Source: a virus. From it: a stretch of 64,000 nucleotides of DNA. The stretch spans positions 25,260 through 89,259 of IMG/VR virus record IMGVR_UViG_3300005529_000004, one strand, 5' to 3'. Positions 4,910 to 64,000 of the stretch are shown here, in pieces. The notes below the pieces were generated by a model. That model saw nothing but the letters and a program-made list of their open reading frames with translations. It was not told the DNA's origin and did no database searches. Both the position numbers and the translations under genes were made by a program. Within the stretch, counting starts at the first letter, position 1. Every line of letters begins with the position of its first letter.

Positions 4910-5707
4910 TCAAGTCTCGGACGAGCTTAGCAGCTCCCGGAGACGGCGCAATGCTTCCCGCTGCCACGCCTGCACGGTGGTCGTGCTCTTGCCCACGTGC
5001 GCGGCGATCTCGCCCAGGCTCAGCGGCGGCTGGCCGTCGAATCCGAAGCGCAGCCGGACGATCTCGCCCAGCTCCGGTGGAAGGTCGAGCAGGGCCGCGC
5101 GAAGATGCGTCGCGTCCCAGTGTCCCTCGCTCGGGTCGTCGGCGTGCGGGTCGGCGACCGTGTCCAGCAGGCTCTGGGAGTAGTCGTCATCGAGGTAGAC
5201 CTCGCGGTTGAGGCTCGTCACGACCTCGGCTGCTTCGAGCGCGCGCCGAATCTCCTCCGGCTCGGCGTCCAGGTCCTTCGCGAGCTGCTCGATCGTCTTG
5301 TGCGGCTCGGCTGCGAGCGCGCCGCGCGCCTTCGCGCGATGCTCGGCGACCTGGGGAGGCAGACGGATCGTGGCCGCGTTCGCCGACAGGCCGGTGAGAA
5401 TGTACTTGCGGACCCAGAGCGTGGCGTAGGTCGTGAAGCGGAAGCCCAGCTCCGGGTCAAACTTGCGCGTGGCGTGGTCGAGACCCAGCACGCCGTCCTG
5501 GACGATGTCCTCGTAGTCGCCGCGATGCCTGTAGCCGCGAGCGATGCTGAGCACGAGGCGCATATTGCACCGGATCAGCTCATGGCGCGCGCTCTCGTCT
5601 CCCCGCCCTGCTCGCCGCGCCAGGTCGCGCTCCTCCTTCGCGGTTAGCAGGCGGTGGTTGGCGGCGGAATCGAGGAACCGCTGGTGGCCCTCGTCCGTCG
5701 TTCTCAT
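4910..5707 (-). CDS. Sigma-70 family RNA polymerase sigma factor
   Basis: A 265-aa sigma factor with regions 2, 3 and 4. Region 2 includes NMRLVLSIARGYRHRG, DIVQDGVLGLDHATRKFDP and FRFTTYATLWVRKYI, the stretch that binds core enzyme and melts the -10 element. Region 3 includes IRLPPQV and the helical part QLAKDLDAEPEEIRRAL. Region 4 is LPPELGEIVRLRFGFDG plus the helix-turn-helix LSLGEIAAHVGKSTTTVQAWQ. The close match to primary (RpoD-like) sigma in region 2.3-2.4 predicts a TATAAT-like -10 preference. It would redirect host RNA polymerase; the four GATAAT modules in this window are candidate targets. It precedes copy A in the leftward order. No anti-sigma gene recognised nearby. Confidence 0.95.
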   Translation of the reverse strand: MRTTDEGHQRFLDSAANHRLLTAKEERDLARRAGRGDESARHELIRCNMRLVLSIARGYRHRGDYEDIVQDGVLGLDHATRKFDPELGFRFTTYATLWVRKYILTGLSANAATIRLPPQVAEHRAKARGALAAEPHKTIEQLAKDLDAEPEEIRRALEAAEVVTSLNREVYLDDDYSQSLLDTVADPHADDPSEGHWDATHLRAALLDLPPELGEIVRLRFGFDGQPPLSLGEIAAHVGKSTTTVQAWQREALRRLRELLSSSET

Positions 5708-37425: not shown

Positions 37426-38792
37426 GTGCATCAACAGGAAGGGGCGACTCCACCGTCGATCGAGCCAGGGCCAGCTCCGATCGAGAGCGATCGAGAGCTG
37501 AGGCCCGGAGTCGAGTCGGTCGAGGACGTCCCGCAGGCCGATGTGCTGGCAGCCCGCCCCGAGGACTCGTTCTTGGAGAACGACGATCGCACGCCGATCA
37601 TGTGGCACTCGAACGCGCCGTGGGTCGGCTCCGGCTATGGCACGCAGACCGGCCTGTTCGGTCCGCTGCTCGACACGCAGCTCGGCTATGACGTCGCCTT
37701 CAGCGCGTTCTTCGGGTTGCAGGGCGCGCGCCAGGGCTGGGTCGCGCCGAACGGCCGTCCCTACGTCGTGTACCCAAGCGGCCGCGACGGGCACGGCAAC
37801 GACGTCCTGGGCGCACACACGAAGCACTGGTTCCGAGGGCGCGGTGGCTACTGCATCCTGCTGACGGACCCGTGGGTCATGCAGCCGAAGATCATTCAGC
37901 GGCTGCCCTGCCTGGCCTGGGTCCCGGTGGACCACGACCCGATCATGCCGCGCACACACCACTGGTTCAACGAGTCCGGTGCTATCGCCGTGGCCATGAG
38001 CCGCTTCGGGCAGCGCATCCTGGAGGAGGCCGGGCACGAGGACGTCCAGTACGTCCCGCACGGGTTCAACCCACGTACCTTCCGGCCGATCGACCGTGGC
38101 GAGGCGAGGAAGGCGCTCGGGCTGCCGCAGGACGCTTTCGTGGTCGGGATGGTCGCGGCCAACCTCGGCTTCCCGTCACGCAAGAGCTTCTCGCAGGCAT
38201 TCCAGGCATTCGCCCGGCTGCAGGAGAACCACAACGACTGCATCCTCTACCTGCACACCTGGATGGAGAATCCTGACGGCGAGCCGCTCTCTGACATGTG
38301 CGACGGCCTCAAGATCAGGCCGTGGGTCGCGGACCAGTACGGACTGACGCTCGGCATCCCCGACAAGGTCGTCGCGGCCACGCTCAACGCCTTCGACGTG
38401 CTGCTCAACCCGAGCACGGGCGAGGGCTTCGGCGTCCCGCTGCTGGAGGCGCAGGCGTGCGGCACGCCCTGCATCACGACCAACTTCTCCTCGATGCCGG
38501 AGGTCGCGCCGGTCGAAGCAGGCAACTGGTGCGTTGGAGGCCAGCCGGTGTACACGCCGTTTGAGAGCTGGCAGCTCACGCCGAGCGTCGAGGAGCTGGT
38601 CGAGTGCCTGGAGGAAGCCTACGCCGACGACGAACAGCAGCGCCTCCGGCGCCGCGCTTCTACTTGCGCGTGGGCCTCGCAGGAGTACCTCGCGGACGAG
38701 ATCGTGGAGAAGCACTGGAAGCCGGTGCTGGACTGGGCCGCGCAGGAGTTCGTCTGGCGTTCGCGGCGGATGGTCCGCTACTCGGTCGGCGG

Positions 38793-38796
<4 letters not shown>
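37426..38796 (+). CDS. Glycosyltransferase, GT4-like (GT-B fold)
   Basis: A 456-aa enzyme. After a 60-residue acidic N-terminus, MWHSNAPWVGSGYGTQTG is the donor/acceptor Gly-rich loop of GT-B enzymes, and STGEGFGVPLLEAQACGTPC is the E-x7-E retaining motif of family 4. It probably transfers a sugar nucleotide onto phage or host glycan. GGGAGGG lies before the GTG. It opens the 37.4-46 kb glycan cassette, following tRNA-Met, and is coupled by ATGA to the epimerase. Confidence 0.92.
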
Positions 38797-39904
<1,108 letters not shown>

Positions 39905-39908
<4 letters not shown>

Positions 39909-40000
39909 GGTGGGAGTACATCAAGCTGGCGCTGGCGCTCACGGCTGTGGTCGCTGCCGAGATGCTGCTCTACGCGATCTTCAGGTCGTCCTGGCGATGA
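39905..40000 (+). CDS. Micro membrane protein, 31 aa
   Basis: MRWEY followed by IKLALALTAVVAAEMLLYAIF and a basic end RSSWR, one membrane helix. GTGA overlap with the epimerase and ATGA with the next glycosyltransferase; coupled on both sides. Confidence 0.55.
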
Positions 40001-40986
40001 GGTCAGCGCTCCTCCAGCTCCCCGGCAACCCGTTCATCCTTCGGTACTGGCTCCGCAACTACGAGGCCGTCTGGAAGGGCGAAGTGGACGAGCTGAGGGT
40101 CTTCGTGAACGGCAACCCGCGCGCCGATCAGGTGCAGGCGATGCGGCGGCTCGTGCAGGACACGGGAGGCATCTTCACCGCACAGGAAGGACGCCTGGTT
40201 CACGGCCAGGCAACGCGTATCCTCATCGGCGAGACTGAAGCCACCGACGTTCTGCTGATCGAGGACGACGCCTTCGTCCGTCAGCCCGGCGCGATCGACC
40301 GCGCCTTCGTGGATGCGGAGTGTGGGGCCGTGGTCGGCTCGCCGCGAGGTGGGATGGACCCGGCGATCGAGCAGGCAGCGCGCGATAAGTGGGGACCCGA
40401 TCCCGAAGGGCCAGACGGATCGTCGGGCTACGGGCTGTGGCCATGCTTCATGTTCGGCCCGCGCCACGTTCTGGACGAGGTCAAGGACGGGTTCTCATCG
40501 CAGAGCTGGCCCGCCGGTCAGGTGATTCCCGGCCTGGGATGCTGGTTCGGGTTCGAGACGCATACCGACACGACGACCAGCTCGGCCTTCCGGCTCCGCG
40601 AAGCAGGCATCCCGCTCGTCTACGAGGGCCAGTGGAAGGAGCTGTGGATGAAGGACCTGTCCGCGATGCAGGAGAAGGCGGGCTACGACCCTCCCTGGTT
40701 CCACAGCGGCGGGCTGTCGAACGAGAACCTCTACCTCGTCACCGAGGTGCCCGAGGGCGCCTTCGGCGTGCGTCCGAACATCGGAGGCACGCTGGAGGGC
40801 ACCGACTGGGCGCACCGCATCTGGTGGTGGCGGCGCTGCATCGAGACCGCGCCGGACGACTTCTTCCCCGAGGTCGGCGGGCATATCCTCAACCAGCTCC
40901 TGACGCTGGAGAACTACTGCAACGTCTTCGAGGACGTGGATCGCTGGGAGCAGATGCTTCCGGCCTGGATCACCTGGGAGGAGTAA
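39997..40986 (+). CDS. Glycosyltransferase-like protein (GT-A type), 329 aa
   Basis: Starts with LLQLPGNPFILRYWLRNYEAV, the strand-loop of GT-A enzymes, and has VLLIEDDAFVR, an EDD that can serve as the DxD metal and nucleotide-sugar site. Later WKELWMKDL and WFHSGGLSNENLY are shared with its paralog at 41492-42499. It would use a sugar nucleotide and Mn/Mg. Part of the cassette; coupled to the next gene by TAATG. Confidence 0.82.
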   Translation: MRSALLQLPGNPFILRYWLRNYEAVWKGEVDELRVFVNGNPRADQVQAMRRLVQDTGGIFTAQEGRLVHGQATRILIGETEATDVLLIEDDAFVRQPGAIDRAFVDAECGAVVGSPRGGMDPAIEQAARDKWGPDPEGPDGSSGYGLWPCFMFGPRHVLDEVKDGFSSQSWPAGQVIPGLGCWFGFETHTDTTTSSAFRLREAGIPLVYEGQWKELWMKDLSAMQEKAGYDPPWFHSGGLSNENLYLVTEVPEGAFGVRPNIGGTLEGTDWAHRIWWWRRCIETAPDDFFPEVGGHILNQLLTLENYCNVFEDVDRWEQMLPAWITWEE

Positions 40987-41495
40987 TGGCCGCACGCGGC
41001 TGGGAGCTGGAGCAGATTCTCGACGTCGTCCGTCCGGTCGTCCCGAGCGGCGAAGGGCGAGTGCTGGAGATCGGCACGCATCAGGGACAGAGCCTCCGGT
41101 CCTGGCGCACGCATCTTGACCCGGCGCTGCTGCTCGGCATCCAGGACACGGACGAGACCGCGCCTGCGACGGCCGCTGAGCTGCGCGCTGACGTGTTCCG
41201 GGGTCTCTCGCAGTCGATCGAGGCGTATCGGTGGGTTCGCGGAATGCTCGGCGAGAGCAAGCTCGACTTCCTCTACATCGATGGCGACCACCTCTTCGAC
41301 CCGGCCTACGTGGACTGGCAGATGTACAGCCCGCTCGTCCGCAGCGGTGGTGTTGTCGCGCTTGACGACGCGGTCATTCGCAACAACCCGACCGTCGAGA
41401 TCTACCGGCTCTGGCCGATCGTCTCCGAGGGGCTGCAGTCGAAGGTCATCTACCACCCGGACGGCACCGGCGTCGGAATGGTCTGGATGCCATGA
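40986..41495 (+). CDS. Class I SAM methyltransferase, 169 aa
   Basis: VLEIGTHQGQSLRSW is motif I; FLYIDGDHLFDPAYVDW and LVRSGGVVALDDAV match the Methyltransf_24/cephalosporin-hydroxylase-type small methyltransferases that often modify sugars. In the glycan cassette, a sugar O-methyltransferase is the simplest reading. Short for the family but all core strands are present. Confidence 0.88.
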   Translation: MAARGWELEQILDVVRPVVPSGEGRVLEIGTHQGQSLRSWRTHLDPALLLGIQDTDETAPATAAELRADVFRGLSQSIEAYRWVRGMLGESKLDFLYIDGDHLFDPAYVDWQMYSPLVRSGGVVALDDAVIRNNPTVEIYRLWPIVSEGLQSKVIYHPDGTGVGMVWMP

Positions 41496-42499
41496 AGACC
41501 GCCGCGCTGCTACCGACGCCAGGCGACCCGTTCCTCGTCAAGCACTGGCTCAACAACTGCCGCGAGGTGTGGCGCGACGAAGTGGACGAGGTCCACGTGC
41601 TCGTCGGAGGGCAGCCGGTCACGGAGGCGCGCGACTACATTCGAGAAGCCTGCGCGCTGGCGGGCGCGACCTACCACGAGCGGCTGACCGGCGGGCTGGT
41701 TCCGCACGGCGTGGCGCTGAACATCCTCATCTCCGACTGCGACGCGGACGCGGTTGTTCTCTTGGAGGACGACGTCCGCGTCCGGCACTCGCGGGCGATC
41801 GAAGAGATGTTCGCGAAGATCGAGCGCGACGAGTACGACGTCTGCGCCAGCCCGCGCGTCTCGATGACGCCAAACCTGGAGCAGGCGGCGAAGGCGCGCT
41901 GGGGCGGCGGCATCCTGCAGGACTACGCGGAGGGCCACGGCATGTGGCCTGCCTTCGTGTTCGCCAAGCGGGAGGCTCTGCGGGCGACCGACCGCGATTT
42001 CGGCGAGCGCTCCTGGGGCGAGAAGATGGTCGTGCCGGGCCTGCGCTACCGGGTCCCCGAGGGCGAGGTCGCAGTCTGCGACTGCTTCGGCGGCACCGCC
42101 TTCCAGCTTCGCGACCGGTGCCGCGTGCTCGACATCCCGCAGTGGAAGGGACCGCACCTCTGGAAGAGCCAGCTTGCCGCACAGGATGCGGACATGCACT
42201 GGTTCCACTGCGGCTCGCTGAGCAGCAGCTCGAACCTCTGCGCCGACTGGGACGGGCCGGGCGGGTTCGAGTTCATGGAGGGCCGCACGCTCACCGACCC
42301 GGACGAGATCGCGGAGTGGTCGCACCGGCTCAACTGGTGGCGACGCTGCGCGACCACGCACGCACACGAGTTGCCGGAGTTGTCGAACGTCTACGGCACC
42401 AACTGGCACCGGCTGCGCGAGCGGATGGGCGTGCCGGTCTCGGAGATCAACCGTTGGACGCCGGTCATCAACGACCTGATCACCTGGAGGGAGCGATGA
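41492..42499 (+). CDS. Glycosyltransferase-like protein (GT-A type), paralog of 39997, 335 aa
   Basis: LLPTPGDPFLVKHWLNNCRE and AVVLLEDDVRVRHS align with the same positions of the 39997 protein, with the EDD metal site conserved; WFHCGSLSSSSNL and RLNWWRRC are shared C-terminal blocks. Gene duplication followed by divergence is the simplest explanation. It may add a different sugar. ATGA overlaps on both sides. Confidence 0.82.
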   Translation: MKTAALLPTPGDPFLVKHWLNNCREVWRDEVDEVHVLVGGQPVTEARDYIREACALAGATYHERLTGGLVPHGVALNILISDCDADAVVLLEDDVRVRHSRAIEEMFAKIERDEYDVCASPRVSMTPNLEQAAKARWGGGILQDYAEGHGMWPAFVFAKREALRATDRDFGERSWGEKMVVPGLRYRVPEGEVAVCDCFGGTAFQLRDRCRVLDIPQWKGPHLWKSQLAAQDADMHWFHCGSLSSSSNLCADWDGPGGFEFMEGRTLTDPDEIAEWSHRLNWWRRCATTHAHELPELSNVYGTNWHRLRERMGVPVSEINRWTPVINDLITWRER

Positions 42500-43215
42500 G
42501 GGTAGACCTGCTCGTCCCCTGGCCGCGCAACAACGACTACCCACTCTGGCGCGCATGGCTGCGACGCGAGAGGTCCCGATTCGGGATGGTCATCGTCGCG
42601 TTCACGCCGATCGACGGTCACGACTACCGAGACTTCGTGGTCGAGCGCATGGCGCCAGACGACGTGACCTTCCTCTCGCACGATCCCTGCGAAACGGACT
42701 GGCGCCAGGTTGCCACGCTCGCGATGCTCGGCAAGGCGACGGCGCCGTGGGTCTGGTTCACGGAGCAGGACTTCTTCCCCGAGCCGTGCCTGTGGCCGGT
42801 AGTCGAGGCGCTCTACGAGTACGGCGCCGAGATGATCGGCACGCGGCAGGACCAGCGCTGGCATCCGTGTTGCCTGTTCACCCGACGCGACTGGATCAGC
42901 CACCAGACCGAGGAGTACTTCGGACCGCTGCCGGTGGACCATTTCTACAAGTTCGGCCTCCAGCTCGAAGAGGCGACGTGGTGCTGCGGCAACCAGCAGG
43001 GACCCGCCGAGCTGTCGCCGGAGCTGTTCACGCACCTCGCCGGGACGTCGAGCAACATGGACCTGATCGAGCGCGAGCGCTTCGCCGAGGTCTACAAGCC
43101 CGACCAGATGGCCGCGTACTTGATCGAGAGCCTGCGAGACCCGGTCGAGCCACACGCGCGCTGGCGCCTCTACGCGCAGAAGTTCCTCGACTGGTATGCT
43201 TCCGGCCGTGGCTAG
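42496..43215 (+). CDS. Glycosyltransferase-like protein (GT-A type), 239 aa
   Basis: Starts VDLLVPWPRNNDYPLWRAWL; APWVWFTEQDFFPEPC has acidic TEQD at the metal-binding place of GT-A enzymes, followed by GTRQDQRWHPCCLF. Shorter than its neighbours and less certain. The last codons overlap the GTG of the next gene and contain its TATGCT hexamer. Confidence 0.72.
   Translation: MRVDLLVPWPRNNDYPLWRAWLRRERSRFGMVIVAFTPIDGHDYRDFVVERMAPDDVTFLSHDPCETDWRQVATLAMLGKATAPWVWFTEQDFFPEPCLWPVVEALYEYGAEMIGTRQDQRWHPCCLFTRRDWISHQTEEYFGPLPVDHFYKFGLQLEEATWCCGNQQGPAELSPELFTHLAGTSSNMDLIERERFAEVYKPDQMAAYLIESLRDPVEPHARWRLYAQKFLDWYASGRG
43195..43200 (+). promoter_or_regulatory. TATGCT -10 hexamer, leaderless position
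   Basis: GGTATGCT ends seven bases before the GTG at 43208, inside the end of the previous gene. Confidence 0.5.
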
Positions 43216-44278
43216 GCCGTCCGACCCACTCCCGATTCGTCCGGCAGGCAAGCGCATCTTGCTCTGCCTGTCGCACTCGATCGAGGAGCATGACCAGCTC
43301 AAGCTCCTCTCGGGACTCGGCTACGACGTCGCGTCGATCGGTGGCTACATCAACCCGCACGCGCCACACGACCCGAAGCGCCCGGCGCTGCCGGAGGTGC
43401 CGTACTTCCCCGAGGTGCAGGGCGCCGTGGACGCGCAGGAGGTGCCGGACAACCTCGGCGCGGCGCAGGCGCATATCCCCGACGCGATCCTCGACTGGCT
43501 TGGCAAGGACGGCGTCATCATCTACCACCACTACCTGCAGCGGCTCTTCGGCCAGTGGGACCATCTGGCCGACTGGCGCGCGGGCGGTGGGCGCGTCATC
43601 TGGAGAACGGTCGGCCAGAGCGTCGAGGCGAACGAACGCGAGGCGCTGCCCTATCGCGAGGATGGCCTGGAGGTCATCCGCTACTCGCCGCACGAGAAGT
43701 TCATCCCCGGCTTCATCGGAGCCGATGCGCTGATCCGGTTCTACAAGGACGAGGACGAGTGGTCCGGCTGGACGGGCGAGCAGGCGATCGTCACGAACGT
43801 GACCCAGGAGATGGTCAAGCGCGCCGTCTGGACGAACGCCGCCTTCTGGTGGCACGCCACGAAGGACCTGCCAGCGGCGCCCGCCGGTCCCGACAGCGAG
43901 GCTCTGGAGGGCGGGCTGGGGATGCTGGAGGTCGAGACGATGCAGGCGCTCCTCCGGGAGGCGCGCTGCTATGTCTACACCGGCACGCAGCCCGCGAGCT
44001 ACACGCTCGGGTTGATCGAGGCGATGATGACCGGCATCCCGGTGTTCTCGATCGGGCCGGAGCTGATGACCATGTTTCCGTATGGGCCGCAGCTCTTCGA
44101 GGGCCACCGGCTCGCCGGGCAGTGGTCGAACAACCCGGAGGACGCTCGCGCCTGGTGCCAGAAGATGCTCGACCACTGGGACGCCGCGCACGAGATCTCG
44201 AAGGCCACCCGGATGCTCGCCAAGCTGACGTTCGGCCGCATGGTCGTCGGTGAGGCGTGGAAGGCGTACCTCGGTTGA
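43208..44278 (+). CDS. Glycosyltransferase (GT-B fold), 356 aa
   Basis: KRILLCLSHSIEEHDQLKLL is the N-terminal Rossmann start; YTGTQPASYTLGLIEAMMTG with FSIGPEL corresponds to the donor-binding EAM-x(n)-G block of GT4-like enzymes. GTG at 43208 set by the leaderless hexamer. Coupled to a micro membrane gene by TTGA. Likely another transferase of the cassette. Confidence 0.87.
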   Translation: MARPSDPLPIRPAGKRILLCLSHSIEEHDQLKLLSGLGYDVASIGGYINPHAPHDPKRPALPEVPYFPEVQGAVDAQEVPDNLGAAQAHIPDAILDWLGKDGVIIYHHYLQRLFGQWDHLADWRAGGGRVIWRTVGQSVEANEREALPYREDGLEVIRYSPHEKFIPGFIGADALIRFYKDEDEWSGWTGEQAIVTNVTQEMVKRAVWTNAAFWWHATKDLPAAPAGPDSEALEGGLGMLEVETMQALLREARCYVYTGTQPASYTLGLIEAMMTGIPVFSIGPELMTMFPYGPQLFEGHRLAGQWSNNPEDARAWCQKMLDHWDAAHEISKATRMLAKLTFGRMVVGEAWKAYLG

Positions 44279-44358
44279 GCCGCGAGCGGAAGGCGTGGTG
44301 GGCGCTCTTCGTGCTGGCTCTCGCTGACGCGGTGCTGGTGCTCAAGGACTCGCTGTGA
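44275..44358 (+). CDS. Micro membrane protein, 27 aa
   Basis: SRERK followed by AWWALFVLALADAVLVL and KDSL: a single short membrane helix. TTGA overlap with the glycosyltransferase and GTGA with the deacetylase. Like 39905-40000 it sits between cassette enzymes. Confidence 0.5.
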   Translation: MSRERKAWWALFVLALADAVLVLKDSL

Positions 44359-44942
44359 AGGCGTTAGTCCTCGTTGCCCACCCAGACGACGAGGTCCTCT
44401 TCCTCGGCTCCACGATCCTGGCGCATCCCGACTGGGAGTGGGACATCGTCAGCTTCACGCACGACTGGGAGGACTGGCGCGGCCGCGAGTTCGCGGAGGC
44501 GCACAAGGCGCTGCACTACTTCGGCGGTTCGGTGACGTCGGCGATGCTCGGCCTGGCGGACGAGGACGTCCCCGAGAGCGAGTTCTCCGTCTGGGAGGAC
44601 CGCTTCCTTGAGTGGCTGGCGCAGGGCTATGAGGGCTGGGACCGCGTCTACACGCACAACCGCGTCGGCGAGTACGGCCACCCGCACCACATCGCGGTCA
44701 ACGTCATCGCCCGGCGGCACTTCTGCTTCGACGCGCCCGTCTTCGAGTTCTACTACCCGCCGGTCGTCCCTGGCACGCCGCCGCTGTGGTGGGGAGACGC
44801 CGAGTTCGACTTCGCCTGCGACCCACGCAAGAGCGAGGTCTTCCACCGGGCATACGGCGGGCACTACTCCACGCTCAAGGCGCACCAGCCTGCGCTGATC
44901 AACTTCCTGCTCGGCGCGAACGTGGACATGGTCACCCGATGA
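44355..44942 (+). CDS. PIG-L family deacetylase, 195 aa
   Basis: LVAHPDDEVLFLG is the zinc-binding AHPDDE motif and YGHPHHIAV supplies the second zinc ligand pair. PIG-L/LmbE enzymes remove N-acetyl groups from GlcNAc-containing molecules. In this cassette it would expose an amino sugar, a possible acceptor for later modification. All three metal ligands are present. Confidence 0.92.
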   Translation: MKALVLVAHPDDEVLFLGSTILAHPDWEWDIVSFTHDWEDWRGREFAEAHKALHYFGGSVTSAMLGLADEDVPESEFSVWEDRFLEWLAQGYEGWDRVYTHNRVGEYGHPHHIAVNVIARRHFCFDAPVFEFYYPPVVPGTPPLWWGDAEFDFACDPRKSEVFHRAYGGHYSTLKAHQPALINFLLGANVDMVTR

Positions 44943-45994
44943 GGCGGCTCCGCATCCTGGTCGATCGGCATCACGCCGACCTGCTCTATGCGCTGCAGCG
45001 GCTGTTCGAAGACCGGCTCGGATTCGATCTCTACATCCCGGTCGGGCACGAGTGGTGGGATGAGGGCTTCTGGCAGTTCGGCGCCGTCTTCGGTGACGAT
45101 CGGCTGGCGCAGCAGTACCTCGTCACGAACGACAGCTACCACGAGGTCGGTCCCGGCACCTACGTCTGGCGCGACCCGGCTCACCCGCACCGGCCCGTCA
45201 ACTGCCTGACGCTCGATGCCTTCCGCGCGCTCGGCGACTTTGACTTCGTGCTCGCCTCGGTGCAGGAGAACGCACCGGGCTTCCTCCGGCTGGCCTACGA
45301 GGTCGGCGCACAGCTCCTCTACCACGTCGGCAACACCGGGCAGTTCATCGACTGGGCCTGGGATGCGCTGGTCATCTCGACGTCCGAGATGCCGTACCCG
45401 GAGGGCCGAGGCGTGACGATCCACCAGGAGATCGACTCGGGTCCTGGCGACACGTTCGACTTCTGGCCGCTGGAGAGCGGGCACGTCGTCCGTAACTTCG
45501 TCAACGCCTTCGACCGGCTGCCCGGCTACAACCTTTTTCTCGACGCCGAGGAACGGATGCGCGACCTGGACGTCTGGGAGTTCACCGTCCACGGTCACGA
45601 CGGCCGGGACGGAGACATCCAGCCGATCAGCGCCGTAGCGAAGCTCATGCGGACCGCCGGATTCGGCTGGCACGACAAGCCGGTCGGCGACGGGTTCGGG
45701 CACGTCATCCACGCCTGGGCCGCGATCGGCCGACCGCTGATCGGGCACGCCAGCTACTACACGGGCGAGGGCCACTCGCGCCCACCGAAGATGGCCGCTC
45801 CCTTCTGGCGCGACGGCGAGACCTGCATCGACCTGGATCGGCACGGCCCGGAGGAGACGGTTGCGCTGATGCTGGAGATCGCATCCGACCGCGCCCGGCA
45901 CGAGGCGATGGGCCGCGCGCTCCGCGCGACGTTCGACAGCCTCGTGGACTACCGGGCCGAGGCCGAGGCCGTCGCCCGGCTTCTTGGTATCTAG
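44939..45994 (+). CDS. Glycosyltransferase-like protein (GT-B type), 351 aa
   Basis: Begins RILVDRHHADLLYALQRLFE; YHVGNTGQFIDW and LISTSEMPYPEG are in the first Rossmann half; GHVIHAWAAIGRPLIGHAS, near residue 260, resembles the donor-site block of GT-B enzymes, and CIDLDRHGPEE follows. No clear E-x7-E. The final gene of the cassette, then promoter copy C. Confidence 0.75.
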   Translation: MRRLRILVDRHHADLLYALQRLFEDRLGFDLYIPVGHEWWDEGFWQFGAVFGDDRLAQQYLVTNDSYHEVGPGTYVWRDPAHPHRPVNCLTLDAFRALGDFDFVLASVQENAPGFLRLAYEVGAQLLYHVGNTGQFIDWAWDALVISTSEMPYPEGRGVTIHQEIDSGPGDTFDFWPLESGHVVRNFVNAFDRLPGYNLFLDAEERMRDLDVWEFTVHGHDGRDGDIQPISAVAKLMRTAGFGWHDKPVGDGFGHVIHAWAAIGRPLIGHASYYTGEGHSRPPKMAAPFWRDGETCIDLDRHGPEETVALMLEIASDRARHEAMGRALRATFDSLVDYRAEAEAVARLLGI

Positions 45995-46011: not shown

Positions 46012-46063
46012 GTGCAAGATCCCTCGTTCGAGGGATGCGCTCACGGCCCACGTACCCGATAAT
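46012..46063 (+). promoter_or_regulatory. Dispersed promoter module, copy C
   Basis: Diverged copy: AGTGCAAGATCCCTCGTTCG then AGGGATGC, 19 bases and GATAAT at 46058-46063. ATCCCTCG-TT-CGAGGGAT (46019-46036) is a perfect inverted repeat here. The leaderless ATG present in copies A, B and D is replaced by ACC, so the SD-led ATG at 46097 is used. Confidence 0.75.
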
Positions 46064-46096: not shown

Positions 46097-47062
46097 ATGC
46101 CCTACAACGCCGAAGGAATCTACACCCGCAACACCCAGGAGCAAACCTGCACGGGCTGCGGACGCACCGATTCGAACCACCGGCTGATCCGCCCCGCGAA
46201 CGGCGATCCCTACTACCTCACCCTTTGCCGCACCTGCGAGAGCGAGCGGAACGCCGCGCGCCGCGCCCGGCGGAACCGCTCGGGCGACAGGGTCCCCGGC
46301 ATCACCTCCCCGCGCCTCGGCGACCGCCGCAGGTTCGGGGTCGAGATCGAGTGCAACATCCCCGGCGGCTACGACGGGCACCGCGCCCGGATCGTCCGCG
46401 ACGCCCTCCCGAGCGGCTGGCGCATGAAGCACGACGGCAGCCTCGGGATGAACGGCATCGAGGTCGTCAGCCCGGCCCTCCAGGGCCAGGCCGGACTCGA
46501 CTCCCTCCGCACGGTCTACCAGCTCCTCCTCGACAACGAGGCTTCGGTTGACCGGCGCTGCGGCGGGCACGTCCACCACGAGGCTCGCGACCTGGGCGCC
46601 CAGGGCCTGATCCGGTTCGCTCGCAGCTACGCCGCGAACCAGGACCTGATCGACTGGCTGGTCAGCCCGAGCCGCAGGCGCAACGGCAGCACCTACTGCC
46701 ACCGGCTCACCGAGACCGAGCTTTCGGGCCTCCGGGTCTACGGCGATGGCATCAGCGGAATCCCGAGCCGCTACAAGACGGTCAACCTCCACTCCTTCGC
46801 CCGCTACGGCACGGTGGAGATCAGGCAGCACCAGGGCACGCTGAGCTTCCGCAAGATGGAGGCCTGGATCAAGCTGGGCCAGGGCCTCCTGGATGCGGTC
46901 GCCGGTCGCGGACAGGCCTTCAGCGGATTCACCAGCCTCCGCGAGTTCCTCAACACCACCGGCATCGATGAGGACGCCGGAGCCTTCCTCCTGGGCCGCG
47001 CGGTGCAGTTCAACGCACCGAGCGCGATCCTGGCGCAGGGCAACGTGGCGGTGGCGGCATGA
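46097..47062 (+). CDS. Amidoligase (Amidoligase_2-like) with an N-terminal zinc ribbon
   Basis: A 321-aa ATP-dependent carboxylate-amine ligase. A zinc ribbon (C18, C21, C44, C47: CTGCGR, CRTCES) precedes the catalytic domain. RRFGVEIECNIPGG (E83, E85), MKHDGSLGMNGIEVVSP, CGGHVHHEARDL (H158, H160) and YGTVEIRQHQGTLSF (E241, R243, H245) match the conserved blocks of the phage/bacterial amidoligase family related to glutamine synthetase, described by comparative genomics as forming amide bonds between a carboxylate and an amine. An AAGGAG lies before the ATG. In an operon with a class II glutamine amidotransferase. Substrate unknown. Confidence 0.9.
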   Translation: MPYNAEGIYTRNTQEQTCTGCGRTDSNHRLIRPANGDPYYLTLCRTCESERNAARRARRNRSGDRVPGITSPRLGDRRRFGVEIECNIPGGYDGHRARIVRDALPSGWRMKHDGSLGMNGIEVVSPALQGQAGLDSLRTVYQLLLDNEASVDRRCGGHVHHEARDLGAQGLIRFARSYAANQDLIDWLVSPSRRRNGSTYCHRLTETELSGLRVYGDGISGIPSRYKTVNLHSFARYGTVEIRQHQGTLSFRKMEAWIKLGQGLLDAVAGRGQAFSGFTSLREFLNTTGIDEDAGAFLLGRAVQFNAPSAILAQGNVAVAA

Positions 47063-47325
47063 CCACCGAGCTGACAATCACCTTCCCCGATGGGACGAGC
47101 CTGGCGGCTCCCTCCGCCAGGCACCTCCTCCGGGCCTGGGCAGCGGGGCAGTGGCACGATGCCTCCGACGACCAGGGCTGGCGGGACGAGCTGGCGAAGC
47201 GGGCCTACATCTGGTCCGGCCGGATCGTCAACACCGAGGCGCCGCCGCTCCGATTCCTCTTCGAGCTTGAGGCATCGGGCCTCATCAAGATCATCGACAA
47301 GCCGACGAACGGAAGGAGCCACTGA
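47059..47325 (+). CDS. Small protein between amidoligase and amidotransferase, 88 aa
   Basis: Reads ELTITFPDGTSLAAPSARHL, a beta-hairpin with a Ser/His, then a helical WAAGQWHDASDDQGWRDELA and RFLFELEASGLIKII. Coupled by ATGA to the amidoligase and TGATG to the amidotransferase, so likely produced with both. No family recognised; it may carry or bind the substrate. Confidence 0.7.
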   Translation: MTTELTITFPDGTSLAAPSARHLLRAWAAGQWHDASDDQGWRDELAKRAYIWSGRIVNTEAPPLRFLFELEASGLIKIIDKPTNGRSH

Positions 47326-48431
47326 TGTGCGGGCAAGCTGGAATCCACCGCCGCACCGATAAGGCGATCCCCAAGCTGGACAAGCTGAGCAACGAGCTAC
47401 TCCTGGCGATCGAGAGCCGGGGCCGCGACGCCACCGGGTTCCTGACCCTGATGGACAACGGCAAGGTGCAGCTCGCGAAGCAGACGGTCACCGCCAGCCG
47501 CTTCGTCGCGAAGCGCGGGAGGATGCACCGGAACGCCCGGACGGTTCTCCTGCACACCCGCTTCGCGACGGTCGGCGACAAAGGAGACCCGCGCAACGCC
47601 CACCCGGTTGCCTCCGGCAAGGTCGCGGCCGTCCACAACGGCACGATTCGCAACGCCGACGAGGTCTTCCAGACCTTCAACCTGCCACGAGTCGGCACGG
47701 TCGATTCCGAGGTCATCCCCGCGCTGATCGACCGCGAGGGATGGGATAACGTCGCCACCTGCCTGGAGCTGCTGCAGGGCGGCGCGGCCACGGCGATCGT
47801 CCACACCGACCACCCGAACGAGGTCATCCTCGCCCGGCTGCGGATGTACCCGATGGTCTACGGAGTCACCCGCGACGTCGTCATCTGGGCCTCGACCGCC
47901 GAGGCGATCGAGCGCGCCTGGTGGCGGACCTACGGTAAGCGCTTCTCCGGCAAGCTGGTGAGTCTGGCCGAGGGCAGCTACGTTCATATCAACGGGAAGG
48001 TCATCCCCGGCACGCTCAAGGTCGCCGAGCCGCCGAGGATCGTGACGACCTACCAGGCGTACCGGCCGTCCACGACCCACCCGCTTCGGCCGAGCTACCC
48101 GAAGATGAGCAAGAGTCAGCGCAAGCGCGCCCGGCGCAACGGCGCCCGCCCGATCCAGGGGCAGACCACGATCGAGCGGGTGGTCGATGAGGAGCTGGAG
48201 CGCAAGCGGTCCTGCTGGGAAGAGGCGCTCGCGGCCGAGTCTCCCTACTTCAACTACCCGCGCGAGACAGATGAGGAGTGGGACTACACGGACGAGGAGG
48301 CGATCACGAGCCTCATGCGCCAGGGTTGCTCCCGCGCCGTCGCCGAGTCGATCATCTACGACGAGGACGACGAGGACGACATCTGGTGCACCGCGTCTCC
48401 CGCGACGCGCGCCCTCTACGCGCTCGACTAG
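47325..48431 (+). CDS. Class II glutamine amidotransferase (N-terminal nucleophile)
   Basis: A 368-aa protein beginning MCGQAGIHRR: Cys2 becomes the N-terminal nucleophile once Met is removed. SRGRDATGF, LHTRFATVG, NAHPVASGKVAAVHNGTIRN and DSEV are the glutamine-binding blocks of GATase II. It would release ammonia from glutamine for the partner amidoligase. The C-terminal 170 residues are a charged extension (KMSKSQRKRARRNGARP, acidic end) with no synthase domain, so it needs a partner. TGATG overlap with the previous gene. Confidence 0.9.
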   Translation: MCGQAGIHRRTDKAIPKLDKLSNELLLAIESRGRDATGFLTLMDNGKVQLAKQTVTASRFVAKRGRMHRNARTVLLHTRFATVGDKGDPRNAHPVASGKVAAVHNGTIRNADEVFQTFNLPRVGTVDSEVIPALIDREGWDNVATCLELLQGGAATAIVHTDHPNEVILARLRMYPMVYGVTRDVVIWASTAEAIERAWWRTYGKRFSGKLVSLAEGSYVHINGKVIPGTLKVAEPPRIVTTYQAYRPSTTHPLRPSYPKMSKSQRKRARRNGARPIQGQTTIERVVDEELERKRSCWEEALAAESPYFNYPRETDEEWDYTDEEAITSLMRQGCSRAVAESIIYDEDDEDDIWCTASPATRALYALD

Positions 48432-48436
48432 GCCGG

Positions 48437-48497
48437 TTCAAGAACTACCCGTTCGAGGGATGCCGAACGGCGTCCCTCGGGCGATAATAGTGGCATG
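48437..48497 (+). promoter_or_regulatory. Dispersed promoter module, copy D
   Basis: TTCAAGAACTACCCGTTCG then AGGGATGC, 19 bases, GATAAT at 48483-48488, six bases, then an ATG (48495) in frame with the DNA ligase. Drives the ligase-GGDEF operon. Confidence 0.8.
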
Positions 48498-48524
48498 GAG
48501 ACCACCACCTACCAGGAGGCAACA

Positions 48525-49838
48525 ATGCCGAGCAACACGCAAACCGGGCGCGGACCCACCGGGCGCCTTCGCAACTTCCGCGCGATGAGCGCGGGCAAGC
48601 TTCAGGCCACCTACCTCGCGGTCGCGGCCGAGGGCAACGACCCCGAGGCCCTCGACGCACTGACCGCCGAGCTGGACTCGCGCGGGATGGGCGCAAGCGC
48701 CGAGGCCGAGGCAGCCGCCAACTGGCGCGAGACGATCGCGCAGCCGCACATGGGCCAGATCGTTGACGCCCACCTCGCCGAGAACGACTGGAGCGCGGTG
48801 GACGCCGAGATCGCGGCCGAGGACGCCGAGGTGCAGGAGCTGGCCGAAGCGATCGAGGCGCAGGGCGGGATCACCGACCCGGCGCCCGAGACGGACACCC
48901 GGACGCGCACGCAGCTTCGCGGGTTCGAAGACGCGAGCAAGCTGGCGATGAACAGCAAGAGCGCCAACACGGTCGAGGAAGCCTGCCAGGGACGCCCGGC
49001 GATCCTGGAGCCGAAGTTCGACGGGATCAGGCTCCTGGCCAACCGCAGCGAGAACGGCGTCCGGCTCTGGACGCGCAGCGGCAAGAGCGCCACGGGCAAG
49101 CTGCCGAGGATCGAGCAGCTCCTCGCCGACCACCTACCGGTCGGCACCTGGCTCGACTGCGAAGCGGTCGCCTTCAACCCGAACGGCACGCAGGACTGGG
49201 GCGGCGCGCAGAGCGTCCTCGGCTCCGACGCCAGCCGGGTTATGGACCGGGGCCGGATCAAGCTGGTGGTCTTCGACTGCCTCGCCTGGGCGGGCGGCGA
49301 CATTCGCAACCAGCCCTTCAGCCTCCGGCGCACGACGATCGACCGGGTCTTCGAAGGCGACGCGAACCAGGCTCGCTGGGAAGGCCGGATCATCGCCAGC
49401 CCGAAGATGGACGCCACCGACGAGATGCACCAGATCAACCTCGACTTCGGATTCGAGGGCAGCATGGTCAAGCTGCTGGACGGCACCTACCAGTCCGGCA
49501 AGCGCTCGAACGTCTCGATGAAGCTGAAGGCCACCGACACGGTGGACGCGATCATCACCGGATTCTCCCCTTCGGAGCCTGGTAGCTGGATCGACCAGGC
49601 CGGGCTGATCGGCGCCATCGAGTTCACGCACTACCAGGACGGCCAGCCGATCGAGGGCAAGTGCAGCGGGATGACGGTTGCCGAGCGCGAGCGGGTCACC
49701 GCCGAGGCCGAGGCCCTGATCGGAACGGTCATCGAGGTCAGCTACATGACCCGGATGCCCGGCTCCGGCAAGCTGCGCCACCCGCAGTTCAAGCGGCTCC
49801 GCACCGACAAGACCGCCGACGAGGTGAGGAACGGCTGA
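48525..49838 (+). CDS. ATP-dependent DNA ligase
   Basis: A 437-aa ligase. Motif I is EPKFDGIRLLAN (the adenylated Lys in KFDG); then motif III WLDCEAVAF, motif IV FEGSMVKLLDG and motif V VSMKLKATD, followed by an OB-like C-terminal part with the basic KLRHPQFKRLR. The first 150 residues are a charged helical extension of unknown role. The ATG at 48525 has AGGAGG; the in-frame leaderless ATG at 48495 would add METTTYQEAT. It seals nicks in DNA during replication or repair. The GGDEF gene follows. Confidence 0.92.
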   Translation: MPSNTQTGRGPTGRLRNFRAMSAGKLQATYLAVAAEGNDPEALDALTAELDSRGMGASAEAEAAANWRETIAQPHMGQIVDAHLAENDWSAVDAEIAAEDAEVQELAEAIEAQGGITDPAPETDTRTRTQLRGFEDASKLAMNSKSANTVEEACQGRPAILEPKFDGIRLLANRSENGVRLWTRSGKSATGKLPRIEQLLADHLPVGTWLDCEAVAFNPNGTQDWGGAQSVLGSDASRVMDRGRIKLVVFDCLAWAGGDIRNQPFSLRRTTIDRVFEGDANQARWEGRIIASPKMDATDEMHQINLDFGFEGSMVKLLDGTYQSGKRSNVSMKLKATDTVDAIITGFSPSEPGSWIDQAGLIGAIEFTHYQDGQPIEGKCSGMTVAERERVTAEAEALIGTVIEVSYMTRMPGSGKLRHPQFKRLRTDKTADEVRNG

Positions 49839-49856
49839 TCCCCGAACGAGGGATCA
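49836..49856. promoter_or_regulatory. Hairpin after the DNA ligase
   Basis: TGATCCC-CGAACGA-GGGATCA starts on the stop codon. Read on the minus strand it is nearly the inverted-repeat core of promoter copy C (ATCCCTCGTTCG). It may be an attenuator or a binding site of the same regulator; no T-run follows. Confidence 0.4.
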
Positions 49857-49889
49857 GCCTCCAAGCGATCGACGCCGATTCACGAAGCC

Positions 49890-50360
49890 ATGACCAACAC
49901 CGACATCTACCAGGACCTGAAAGCCGAGATCGAGCGCCTGCGCGAGCTGGCCTACACCGACCGGCTTACCGGCATCGCCAACCGCGCCGCCTTCGAAGAG
50001 AAGCTCGCCGAGGTCGTCGCCGATCGGCGCACCTACACGCTGATCTACATCGACCTGGACGGGTTCAAGGCGGTCAACGATGGCCACGGGCATGAGGCCG
50101 GAGACGCGGTCCTGCAGAACGTCGCGGAGGTGCTTCGGGACAGCCTGCGCGAGGGCGACTTCCTCGCCCGGCTCGGCGGCGACGAGTTCGCGATCCTGAC
50201 TCGCGCGAAGGATGCGCCGGGTCTGGCCGAGCGGCTCGCCACGCCGGGGCTGCCCGAGGTCGGGCTGAGCGTCGGAGTCGCACGCGGGCGCGGGCGCAAG
50301 GTCCTGCGCGAGGCCGACCACCGGATGTACGAGCAGAAGGCAGCGCGCGTCGCCTGCTAA
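49890..50360 (+). CDS. GGDEF diguanylate cyclase, stand-alone
   Basis: A 156-aa protein that is almost only a GGDEF domain. YTDRLTGIANR is the N-terminal wide-turn motif, LIYIDLDGFK and VNDGHGHEAGD supply metal and base contacts, and RLGGDEFAIL (GGDEF at 96-100) is the intact active site. R87-E-G-D90 five residues before GGDEF is a complete RxxD inhibition site. It should make cyclic di-GMP with product feedback. No sensor domain: only a 20-residue N-terminal helix that may dimerise it. It would perturb host cyclic-di-GMP signalling. Confidence 0.93.
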   Translation: MTNTDIYQDLKAEIERLRELAYTDRLTGIANRAAFEEKLAEVVADRRTYTLIYIDLDGFKAVNDGHGHEAGDAVLQNVAEVLRDSLREGDFLARLGGDEFAILTRAKDAPGLAERLATPGLPEVGLSVGVARGRGRKVLREADHRMYEQKAARVAC

Positions 50361-50364
50361 ACTC

Positions 50365-50410
50365 GCGCCAGCAGGCTGGCGCTCAAGATGACGGAGCCGC
50401 ACGGAGGAGG
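50365..50410 (+). terminator. Tandem hairpins after the GGDEF gene
   Basis: GCGCCAG-CAGG-CTGGCGC (50365-50382) and then GAGCCGC with GCGGCTTC (about 50393-50415), followed by CCGTCGTTC. Probably a terminator. Confidence 0.55.
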
Positions 50411-50466
50411 CGGCTTCCGTCGTTCTGGACGCAGTTTGTCCGAAGTGCGACGTCGGCCGTGCCGGG

Positions 50467-50472
50467 TAGACT
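50467..50472 (+). promoter_or_regulatory. TAGACT -10 hexamer
   Basis: GGGTAGACT ends nine bases before the GTG at 50482; transcript with a 2-3 base leader or none. Confidence 0.5.
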
Positions 50473-50718: not shown

Positions 50719-51200
50719 TGCCTTACCTCACTGTCACCGGCGAGTCCTCCTGGACCTGCCGGGGCAAGCGGTACAACCCCGGCACACACAAGGTACCGAA
50801 GGCCGTCGCACAGGCAGCGATGGACGCGGGCATCCCGCGCCTGATCGTCACGGGCCGCTCGCCGTCGATCCGCAAGCCGCGCAACACGGGACCGCTCCAG
50901 CGCGACGAGGTGTTCACGACCGGGACGCCGAGCGGCGTCCAGATCGGGCCGGAGCCGCGCGAGCCTGTCGTGCCCGAGCCGGTCATCAAGACGGCCGAGG
51001 ACCTGTACGACGTCCCGCTCGACCACGAATGCCCGTGGTGCCCGGATCAGGCCTTCCCGAGCGCCGGGGCGCTGGGGCGCCACAAGGAAGCGCACCATGC
51101 CGGGATGATGGACCGGCCGCATGAAGCGCTCGCAGAGCCACACGGCCCGGACAGTGGCGCCGGACCGCTCCCCTGGCGGGACGCCGCAGTAGACTCCTAG
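50718..51200 (+). CDS. Protein with a C2H2-type zinc finger, 160 aa
   Basis: Begins YLTVTGESSWTCRGKRYNPG and a basic region TGRSPSIRKPRNTG. Residues 106-128 read CPWCPDQAFPSAGALGRHKE ending AHH: a C-x2-C-x(n)-H-x4-H zinc finger with the eukaryotic-like spacing. It is at the head of the connector genes. Possibly binds DNA ends or a head component; TAGTG overlap. Confidence 0.75.
   Translation: MPYLTVTGESSWTCRGKRYNPGTHKVPKAVAQAAMDAGIPRLIVTGRSPSIRKPRNTGPLQRDEVFTTGTPSGVQIGPEPREPVVPEPVIKTAEDLYDVPLDHECPWCPDQAFPSAGALGRHKEAHHAGMMDRPHEALAEPHGPDSGAGPLPWRDAAVDS
51190..51195 (+). promoter_or_regulatory. TAGACT -10 hexamer, leaderless position
   Basis: GCAGTAGACT ends seven bases before the ATG at 51203. 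Confidence 0.6.
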
Positions 51201-51202
51201 AC

Positions 51203-51862
51203 ATGGCCGAGCAGCCTCTCCATCTGGCGTCCGTGGACGACGTGAAGCGCATCCTCCGCATCGAGGCGAGCACCGACCTGACGATCGAGGCGCGTCTGCG
51301 GGCTGCGCTCGAAGCTGTCGAGTCGATGATGATGCAGCGGCTGTGGAACATGACCGGCTCCGGCGCCCAGCTCGAAGTCTTCTGGGACGTCCCCGAGGAC
51401 GCCACGCTGCGGATGCCTGCGCCGGACGTCACAGTCACGGCGGTCAAGGCGTTCGAGTACCCGTCGAGCGCTGGCGTGCCGCTGTCGCCGATCGAGCTGG
51501 GCCTCGGGCACGGCTACGACCTGACCGACAACGGCGACCTGATCCTGCGGCCGACGCTGTTCGTCTCCCCGTTCGAAGGCGCGAGCGCCCAGCGGCGCCT
51601 GCGGCAGTATGCGCGCGTCGAAGTTCACTACATGGGCACCGGCGTCGTGCCCGAGGCTGTGCAGGAAGGTATCGCCTTCCTCGCTGCGGGCTGGTACCAG
51701 GACGGGCCTCGCGCGCTCTCCGGCCTCACGGACGAGAAGATCGGCGACTACTCGTACACGATCAACCCGACTCCCGACGAGGACGGCATGCCAAGCTTCT
51801 ACGCTCGCGGGATGATGATGCTGGCGCCGTTCCTGCGCCGGTCGAGGGTGGCGGTCATCTGA
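51203..51862 (+). CDS. Head-tail connector (gp6/adaptor-like)
   Basis: A 219-aa protein: helical N-terminus (LASVDDVKRILRIEAST, LEAVESMMMQRLW), a beta insertion with DLTDNGDLILRP, and VVPEAVQEGIAFLAAGWYQD with GLTDEKIGDYSY; this is the layout of head-completion adaptors (HK97 gp6-type). ATG from the leaderless hexamer. First of four connector genes in the usual order. Confidence 0.78.
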   Translation: MAEQPLHLASVDDVKRILRIEASTDLTIEARLRAALEAVESMMMQRLWNMTGSGAQLEVFWDVPEDATLRMPAPDVTVTAVKAFEYPSSAGVPLSPIELGLGHGYDLTDNGDLILRPTLFVSPFEGASAQRRLRQYARVEVHYMGTGVVPEAVQEGIAFLAAGWYQDGPRALSGLTDEKIGDYSYTINPTPDEDGMPSFYARGMMMLAPFLRRSRVAVI

Positions 51863-63513: not shown

Positions 63514-64000
63514 GCGTCACTCGGTCCAAGAGCAACTTCGGTGCCCAGGGCGCCACCGGACCGCAGGGTCCACAGGGAGCAACCGGCCCGGCCGGTTCTT
63601 CGAACCCGATCACGAACGTCCAGATCTTCAACGCGACAGGCTACTGGTATCCGCCGACCGGCTGCACGGTGGTCAAGGTCATCCTCTGGGGCGGCGGTGG
63701 CGGTGGTGGCTCCGGCCGCGCATCTGCGGCGTCGGATTCGACGGGTGGATCGGGCGGAGGCGGCGCGGCGAAGGCCGAAGCCACCTTCCGCATCTCGGCG
63801 CTGAGCAACTTCGACTTCATGGGACTGAGCAGTACGGTCTCGGTCCTGAAGCAGGTCAAGGTCACGGTCGGCAAGGGCGGCACCGGAGGCGGGTCGGTCA
63901 TCAACGCGAACGGAGTCGCGGGAGGCGCAGGAGGCACCAGCTCGTTCGGCGCCTACATCTTCGCCTATGGCGGCGGCGGTGGCGGTGGCGGCACGACGTC
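63510..64000 (+). CDS. Glycine-rich tail fibre, partial (runs off the window), paralog of 62491
   Basis: The GTG overlaps the preceding TGA (GTGA) and the frame stays open to base 64000. It begins NFGAQGATGPQGPQGATG and continues NATGYWYPPTGCTVVKVILW and polyglycine stretches, the same order as the previous protein. Duplicate fibres with shared stalk but different loops suggest receptor variation. C-terminus unseen. Confidence 0.8.
   Translation, partial: MSVTRSKSNFGAQGATGPQGPQGATGPAGSSNPITNVQIFNATGYWYPPTGCTVVKVILWGGGGGGGSGRASAASDSTGGSGGGGAAKAEATFRISALSNFDFMGLSSTVSVLKQVKVTVGKGGTGGGSVINANGVAGGAGGTSSFGAYIFAYGGGGGGGGTT

What the first reader, a model, noticed from the sequence alone, without database searches (positions are those of the whole stretch)
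49890..50360. Phage-encoded stand-alone GGDEF diguanylate cyclase with intact active and inhibition sites
All active-site motifs (DLDGFK, NDGHGHEAGD, GGDEF) and the RxxD inhibition site are present in a 156-aa protein lacking any sensory domain. GGDEF enzymes are widespread in bacteria but unusual in phages. It is expressed with the phage DNA ligase from a module promoter, so it is presumably made early. Possible roles: shifting the host to a sessile or non-dividing state, blocking a cyclic-dinucleotide-sensing defence, or producing a decoy signal.
Basis: partly seen in the sequence, partly recalled or inferred. Interest (0 to 1): 0.82.

Follow-up and report, generated by a model that had tools for sequence, protein, structure and literature searches.

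The report
Phage-encoded stand-alone c-di-GMP synthase
A bacterial virus of about 89 kb carries a small, apparently intact copy of the enzyme bacteria use to make the signal molecule cyclic-di-GMP, so it probably rewires its host's behaviour during infection, although similar genes are already known from a few other phage families.

Summary
Window 49890-50360 (+) encodes a 156-aa protein: a GGDEF domain behind a 20-residue helix (PF00990, 108 bits). All metal, guanine and I-site residues are present, and AlphaFold2 gives a complete GGDEF fold (pLDDT 94, pTM 0.87). The record has an exact 120-bp terminal repeat, so it is probably a complete phage genome and the gene is not host contamination.

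Corrections. The domain is compact (31 residues from GGDEF to SVGVA, mostly 39-45 in bacterial relatives) and its tail lacks the usual G-[KR]. Stand-alone phage GGDEF genes are not new: dozens of Mesyanzhinovviridae phages encode 152-156-aa versions, with SGDEF/AGDEF and no RxxD where read. The gene ends a 4.3-kb block (amidoligase, GATase, ligase, GGDEF) between capsid and head-tail genes that three related phages lack. The ligase has its own operator-GATAAT promoter; GGDEF sits behind a hairpin carrying a diverged copy of that operator, and late-type TAGACT promoters start only after it. Early or middle expression is plausible, unproven.

Best reading: a working, product-limited diguanylate cyclase that raises host c-di-GMP. 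Target and benefit are unknown. New member of a known kind; moderate interest.

The parts
49890..50360 (+). GGDEF protein, 156 aa (gene g100 of my numbering)
   Evidence: ORF; PF00990 E 4e-31 over residues 21-152; AF2 pLDDT 94
49896..49955 (+). N-terminal helix, residues 3-22, the only extension before the GGDEF domain; possible coiled-coil dimerisation stub
   Evidence: AF2 secondary structure; the dimer role is inference
50052..50069 (+). DLDGFK, residues 55-60; first metal-binding Asp D55
   Evidence: sequence; D55 and K60 invariant in 65 homologues
50076..50105 (+). NDGHGHEAGD, residues 63-72; guanine-recognition N63 and D72
   Evidence: sequence; N63 invariant, D72 in 64 of 65
50148..50159 (+). 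RxxD inhibition site, R87-E-G-D90
   Evidence: R87 in 59 and D90 in 61 of 65 homologues
50175..50189 (+). GGDEF signature, residues 96-100
   Evidence: sequence; conserved
49833..49859 (+). 10-bp perfect hairpin GGCTGATCCC-cgaacga-GGGATCAGCC over the ligase stop codon; holds CGAGGGAT and the dyad arm ATCCC of the phage operator
   Evidence: best of all 118 called gene starts in the half-site and spacing test, but weak in a full-cassette PWM
49877..49882 (+). GATTCA at the place of the GATAAT -10 element; a degenerate candidate promoter for GGDEF
   Evidence: spacing as in the true cassettes, sequence poor
50365..50382 (+). First hairpin after the GGDEF stop (8-bp stem)
   Evidence: no U-tract
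50387..50424 (+). Second stem-loop after GGDEF; possible terminator without U-tract
   Evidence: z-score -3.6 for the stretch holding both stem-loops
48525..49838 (+). ATP-dependent DNA ligase (g99)
   Evidence: PF01068 and phrog_114
48454..48488 (+). Operator half-site CGAGGGAT and GATAAT -10 of the ligase promoter cassette
47325..48431 (+). Class II glutamine amidotransferase (g98)
   Evidence: PF13522, phrog_14519
47059..47325 (+). Small gene of unknown function between amidoligase and amidotransferase (g97)
46097..47062 (+). Amidoligase (g96), first gene of the accessory block
   Evidence: PF12224, phrog_2443
46019..46063 (+). Palindromic operator ATCCCTCGTTCGAGGGAT and GATAAT before the amidoligase
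50467..50472 (+). TAGACT, leaderless late-type promoter element of the next gene (50482)
51203..51862 (+). Head-tail adaptor (g103), with its own TAGACT at 51190
   Evidence: phrog_442

Best explanation
The gene encodes a functional, soluble diguanylate cyclase. Two copies should pair through the N-terminal helix and the GGDEF faces, condense two GTP into 3',3'-c-di-GMP, and be self-limited by product binding at the RxxD site. With no sensor domain, activity would be set by how much protein the phage makes, so transcription of the gene is the switch: expressing it from the phage's accessory module raises host c-di-GMP. The likely consequence is a change of host state that favours the infection, such as attachment or matrix, less motility or, in an actinobacterial host, prolonged vegetative growth. 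Shown: gene, fold model, motif integrity, presence in a probably complete phage genome, accessory location. Inferred: catalysis, dimerisation, timing, host effect.
For: PF00990 at 108 bits; all conserved catalytic and I-site residues kept although the nearest known relatives are only about 50% identical; complete confident fold close to solved cyclases such as SadC, WspR, SiaD and PleD; D72 kept, so GTP-specific; 120-bp terminal repeat and phage genes with conserved order on both sides; phage-like codon use; the ligase before it carries a replication-type promoter.
Against: No activity data. The tail lacks G-[KR] after K150 and the domain is trimmed by about 10 residues. No recognisable Shine-Dalgarno and only a degenerate -10 before the gene, so expression may be low. 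No orthologue in related phages, so selection on the gene cannot be measured.
Confidence: 0.6

Rival explanations
1. It is a c-di-GMP receptor or sponge rather than an enzyme: the intact RxxD site binds host c-di-GMP, lowering the free pool or steering a partner, while the trimmed catalytic domain turns over little or nothing.
For: Intact R87xxD90; trimmed domain and missing G-[KR] tail.
Against: The whole A-site is kept; receptor-type GGDEFs usually lose it (general knowledge).
Confidence: 0.1
2. Counter-defence: the c-di-GMP it makes, or its occupation of a receptor, misleads a cyclic-nucleotide-based defence such as a c-di-GMP-using CBASS-STING system.
For: Cyclic dinucleotides are central to several anti-phage defences, and phages are known to sequester or degrade them (PMC12657218). 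The gene lies in an accessory block.
Against: No neighbour looks like a defence or counter-defence gene. A cyclase adds rather than removes a signal and could trigger a c-di-GMP-sensing effector. Host unknown.
Confidence: 0.1
3. Passing cargo: a recently acquired host GGDEF fragment with little or no use to the phage.
For: Absent from all related phages found; lies at the end of a variable block; no clear ribosome-binding site.
Against: At about 50% identity to the nearest bacterial domains a neutral copy should have lost some of its conserved residues. Codon use matches the phage. The protein is a tidy stand-alone unit.
Confidence: 0.18
4. The gene is host DNA wrongly joined to a phage contig.
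For: Bacterial GGDEF genes are very common.
Against: Flanked on both sides by phage genes with synteny to three other phages; record with a 120-bp terminal repeat; phage-like codon use.
Confidence: 0.02

Closest known systems
Stand-alone GGDEF proteins of Mesyanzhinovviridae (Pseudomonas phages NEU2024, vanta, AN14; Bordetella phages CN1, CN2, FP1, MW2, LK3)
   Same: Phage-encoded, no sensory domain, 152-156 aa where read, same compact spacing after the GGDEF motif
   Different: About 36-40% identity; SGDEF or AGDEF instead of GGDEF, no RxxD, different genome place and phage family; a separate cluster in the tree, whose placement is not firm
IMG/VR contig 3300044957_000763 (478 kb; L004)
   Same: Small GGDEF protein with GGDEF, RxxD, compact spacing and a similar short tail ADTRMYEAKRASYQ
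   Different: N-terminal hydrophobic segment, so probably membrane-bound; 44% identity; much larger virus contig
Bacillus phage G Gp350, Bacillus phage SP-15 diguanylate cyclase, DGC of a Mu-like Cariaco Basin virus
   Same: Phage-encoded predicted diguanylate cyclases (PMC7785012)
   Different: 26-29% identity for the two Bacillus phage proteins, which are also longer; unrelated phages
Actinobacterial GGDEF domains (Virgisporangium L030, Conexibacter L076)
   Same: Among the closest bacterial domains by score; also compact (34-35 residues) and Conexibacter has a similar short tail
   Different: Part of larger proteins (331-485-aa frames); at most about 52% local identity
Cluster K mycobacteriophage ESAS/SAS start-associated sequences (PMC3203893)
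   Same: Repeated inverted-repeat plus start-associated element before scattered phage genes, like the operator-GATAAT-ATGGAGACC cassette here
   Different: Different sequences; here GGDEF itself has at best a diverged copy

Membership tests
GGDEF-domain diguanylate cyclase (PF00990) | Significant match to the family profile over its length | tested here: met
   108.4 bits against a cut-off of 23.8, profile positions 1-157 of 161
GGDEF-domain diguanylate cyclase (PF00990) | GG[DE]EF A-site, metal-binding Asp, guanine-binding Asn and Asp | tested here: met
   G96-F100, D55, N63, D72 present and conserved in 65 homologues
GGDEF-domain diguanylate cyclase (PF00990) | RxxD I-site five residues before GGDEF (common, not universal) | tested here: met
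   R87-E-G-D90
GGDEF-domain diguanylate cyclase (PF00990) | C-terminal K-x-x-G-[KR] phosphate-binding tail (common, not universal) | tested here: not met
   K150 kept, then AARVAC; G in 44 and K/R in 47 of 65 at the next positions. Several bacterial homologues deviate likewise
GGDEF-domain diguanylate cyclase (PF00990) | Complete GGDEF fold | tested here: met
   AF2 pLDDT 94, pTM 0.87; Foldseek probability 1.00 to solved cyclases
GGDEF-domain diguanylate cyclase (PF00990) | Makes c-di-GMP as a dimer | not testable with these tools
   needs protein; no dimer model could be run
Hypr (cGAMP-making) GGDEF | Asp of GHxxGD replaced, typically by Ser (from general knowledge) | tested here: not met
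   D72 present
mCpol / OptS (Panoptes) | Palm domain nearly without the GGDEF signature (PMC12657218) | tested here: not met
   full GGDEF signature and strong PF00990 score
Mesyanzhinovviridae stand-alone GGDEF lineage | SGDEF/AGDEF signature without RxxD, and grouping with those proteins | tested here: not met
   GGDEF and RxxD present; the window row does not group with them in the tree
Moron-type accessory cassette | Gene absent from relatives, with its own promoter and terminator | tested here: inconclusive
   absence from relatives met; hairpins downstream but without U-tract; own promoter only suggested

The most novel reading that the evidence does not exclude
The phage infects a developing soil actinobacterium and uses its own diguanylate cyclase to raise c-di-GMP, keeping BldD- and RsiG-sigmaWhiG-type complexes loaded, so that the host stays in susceptible vegetative growth instead of sporulating: a phage counter-measure to developmental phage resistance.
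Probability: 0.1. Interest if true: 0.8.

Novelty: new member of a known kind. Interest (0 to 1): 0.42.

Why it matters
Phage GGDEF genes have been noted in genome papers, but in the papers searched here I found none shown to make c-di-GMP or to change an infection. This one has an intact A-site and I-site, no sensor, and lies in a probably complete genome with readable promoter classes, so it is a clean candidate for asking whether a phage can set its host's c-di-GMP level through gene expression alone. In Streptomyces, c-di-GMP stabilises complexes that block sporulation (PMC13232838 abstract) and development limits phage spread (PMC10117723), so an actinobacterial host would give the question a concrete phenotype.

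Tried and rejected
Close phage relatives of the protein: none above 48% identity in IMG/VR, no exact second copy, no ligase relatives found. Bacterial donor: no match better than the thresholds set (1e-26 and 1e-27) in 149 and 247 genomes of the classes of Conexibacter and Virgisporangium; only the first 15-25 candidates per genome were scored. Tree of 108 GGDEF domains: the window row sits in an unresolved polytomy, its five nearest rows by path all Actinomycetota, so origin is not settled. Common origin of compact phage GGDEFs (window, L004, Mesyanzhinovviridae): not supported, not excluded. Host: DNA polymerase and amidoligase hits point to actinobacteriophages and TAGACT leaderless promoters fit, but capsid and tail hits are mixed, so host is left as 'probably Actinomycetota'. 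Operator-GATAAT pattern in viral contigs: 35 hits, two of them 100% identical pieces of this phage, the rest without clear relation. A PWM of the whole cassette does not rank the GGDEF upstream region with the true cassettes (score 4.8 against 43-52, rank 55); only the half-site plus spacing test favours it. Plasmid search: only ordinary bacterial GGDEF proteins below 60% identity among the best hits. Sigma-70 consensus scan empty.

Full report
Observation. The window is 25260-89259 of an 89,259-base virus record. Its first and last 120 bases are identical, so it is very probably a complete genome assembled as a circle. The finding lies at exactly the stated coordinates: an ATG-started ORF of 156 codons with phage-typical codon-position composition. 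Pfam GGDEF matches residues 21-152 with E = 4e-31, and it is the only GGDEF in the record. EAL and PilZ domains were not found.

Anatomy of the protein. Residues 3-22 form one helix, followed by the GGDEF fold (mean pLDDT 94, pTM 0.87, no residue under 50). Foldseek finds solved diguanylate cyclases: SadC, WspR, SiaD, PleD, DgcB. In an alignment of 65 homologues from loci fetched here, the window protein has the conserved residue in every invariant and near-invariant column (invariant: D24, T27, D55, K60, N63, G67, H68, G71, R94, G97, D98, E99, F100, G129; near-invariant: R87, D90, D72, K150 and others). Those loci were retrieved by peptide matches to the query, which favours this result. The Asp of GHxxGD is kept, so a switch to cGAMP through the Hypr substitution (general knowledge) is not indicated. 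Two departures were not noticed at first reading. The stretch from GGDEF to the S-x-G motif is 31 residues, mostly 39-45 in bacterial relatives and 34-35 in two actinobacterial ones. The tail after K150 is AARVAC, without the G-[KR] of most relatives; several actinobacterial homologues deviate in the same way, so this does not exclude activity.

Relatives. Tblastn against 50,697 phage records gives 168 with a match, all below 60% identity. The informative ones are isolated Pseudomonas and Bordetella phages of the Mesyanzhinovviridae, with stand-alone GGDEF genes of 471, 459 and 471 nt in the three regions read. They are compact too, but read SGDEF or AGDEF and lack RxxD. For phage LK3 of this group hyper-biofilm lysogens were reported and its GGDEF gene was named as a candidate, without a causal test (PMC8471281); a later paper finds no integrase in the family and asks for caution about its lysogeny reports (PMC11946847). 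BFVD adds Bacillus phages G and SP-15, and a Mu-like marine virus with a DGC is published (PMC7785012). Among IMG/VR contigs the closest is a 478-kb contig (L004) with an N-terminal hydrophobic segment and the same compact domain and short tail. Nearly all other IMG/VR hits lie in longer, bacterial-type frames. The nearest bacterial domains are about 50% identical. A 108-row tree leaves the window row unresolved, with its five nearest rows by path all Actinomycetota.

Neighbourhood. Related phages sharing the capsid protein at 56-70% identity were found, and none of their records has a GGDEF (four of the eight records are short fragments, one of them a piece of this same phage). In L112, L113 and L114 the order capsid, glycosyltransferase, further sugar genes (in L112 and L113), small gene, head-tail adaptor is conserved, but the block amidoligase, small gene, glutamine amidotransferase, DNA ligase, GGDEF (46097-50360) is missing from the interval. 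The ligase and amidotransferase were not found anywhere in the four long records, an absence without a positive control. GGDEF is therefore the last gene of a lineage-specific accessory block inside the structural region.

Expression. Two promoter-like sequences recur. (i) TAGACT, usually GGTAGACT, with the start codon mostly 6-10 nt after the hexamer, which suggests leaderless transcripts: 15 of 17 TAGACT hexamers are intergenic and most precede gene starts, including the portal gene, the gene after GGDEF (50482), the head-tail adaptor (51203) and a major tail protein homologue (53492). (ii) A cassette with operator (CCCGTTCGAGGGAT or a palindromic form), about 21 nt, then GATAAT, before five genes, among them the amidoligase and the ligase; four of the five share the leader ATGGAGACC. 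The palindromic operator ATCCCTC-N-TTCGAGGGAT followed by GATACT and a start codon 12 nt on also occurs twice in the related phage L114. Before GGDEF, a 10-bp perfect hairpin spans the ligase stop codon and contains CGAGGGAT with the dyad arm ATCCC, 43 nt before the ATG; by this test it is the best of all 118 called gene starts. But the -10 is only GATTCA, and a PWM of the full cassette gives a weak score (rank 55 of all positions). So either GGDEF has a decayed copy of the operator-promoter, or the hairpin simply ends or processes the ligase transcript. Two further stem-loops follow the GGDEF stop.

Mechanism. The best-supported account is an active diguanylate cyclase, feedback-limited by its I-site, whose output is set by phage gene expression. 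The host is not known: actinobacterial signs (DNA polymerase and amidoligase matches, TAGACT leaderless starts, GC 67.7%) outweigh but do not exclude others. If actinobacterial, c-di-GMP would be expected to hold cells in vegetative growth, and development is reported to contain phage infection in Streptomyces (PMC10117723). That last link is speculation here.

Verdict. Observation confirmed; interpretation partly supported. A well-formed new member of a known but little-studied kind.

Noticed in passing
window 11358, 26279, 27297, 50467, 51190, 53476 and others: Recurring GGTAGACT-type element with the start codon about 7 nt after it: a leaderless promoter class of this phage, mostly before structural genes.
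   Followed up: partly
window 31115, 46029, 48454 (+), 4787 (-) and genome position about 14486 (-): Second recurring element: operator TTCGAGGGAT, about 21 nt, GATAAT, then (in four of five) ATGGAGACC leader and AGGAGG. The palindromic operator with GATACT also occurs in related phage L114. Resembles in kind the ESAS of cluster K mycobacteriophages.
   Followed up: partly
genome 1-120 and 89140-89259 (window 63881-64000): Exact 120-bp direct terminal repeat, although the record is handled as linear: probably a complete circular assembly.
   Followed up: yes
window 48540-48689 and genome 11583-11732 (gene g8): The first 50 residues of the DNA ligase are 56% identical to an internal stretch of the 1064-aa head protein g8 (E 4e-12): a shared module of unknown use.
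   Followed up: no
window 46097-48431: Amidoligase and class II glutamine amidotransferase pair, as in Arthrobacter phages such as Ottawa and Shrooms.
   Followed up: no
window 37426-45994: Large sugar-metabolism block (glycosyltransferase, epimerase, PIG-L deacetylase) between capsid and head-tail genes, partly conserved in related phages.
   Followed up: no
window 4910-5707 (-): Phage-encoded RNA polymerase sigma factor (phrog_351, E 4e-52), a candidate reader of one of the two promoter classes.
   Followed up: no
L125 and L145: Two contigs from other metagenome sets are 100% identical to this phage over 11.5 and 14.2 kb, and L109 nearly so over 4 kb.
   Followed up: no
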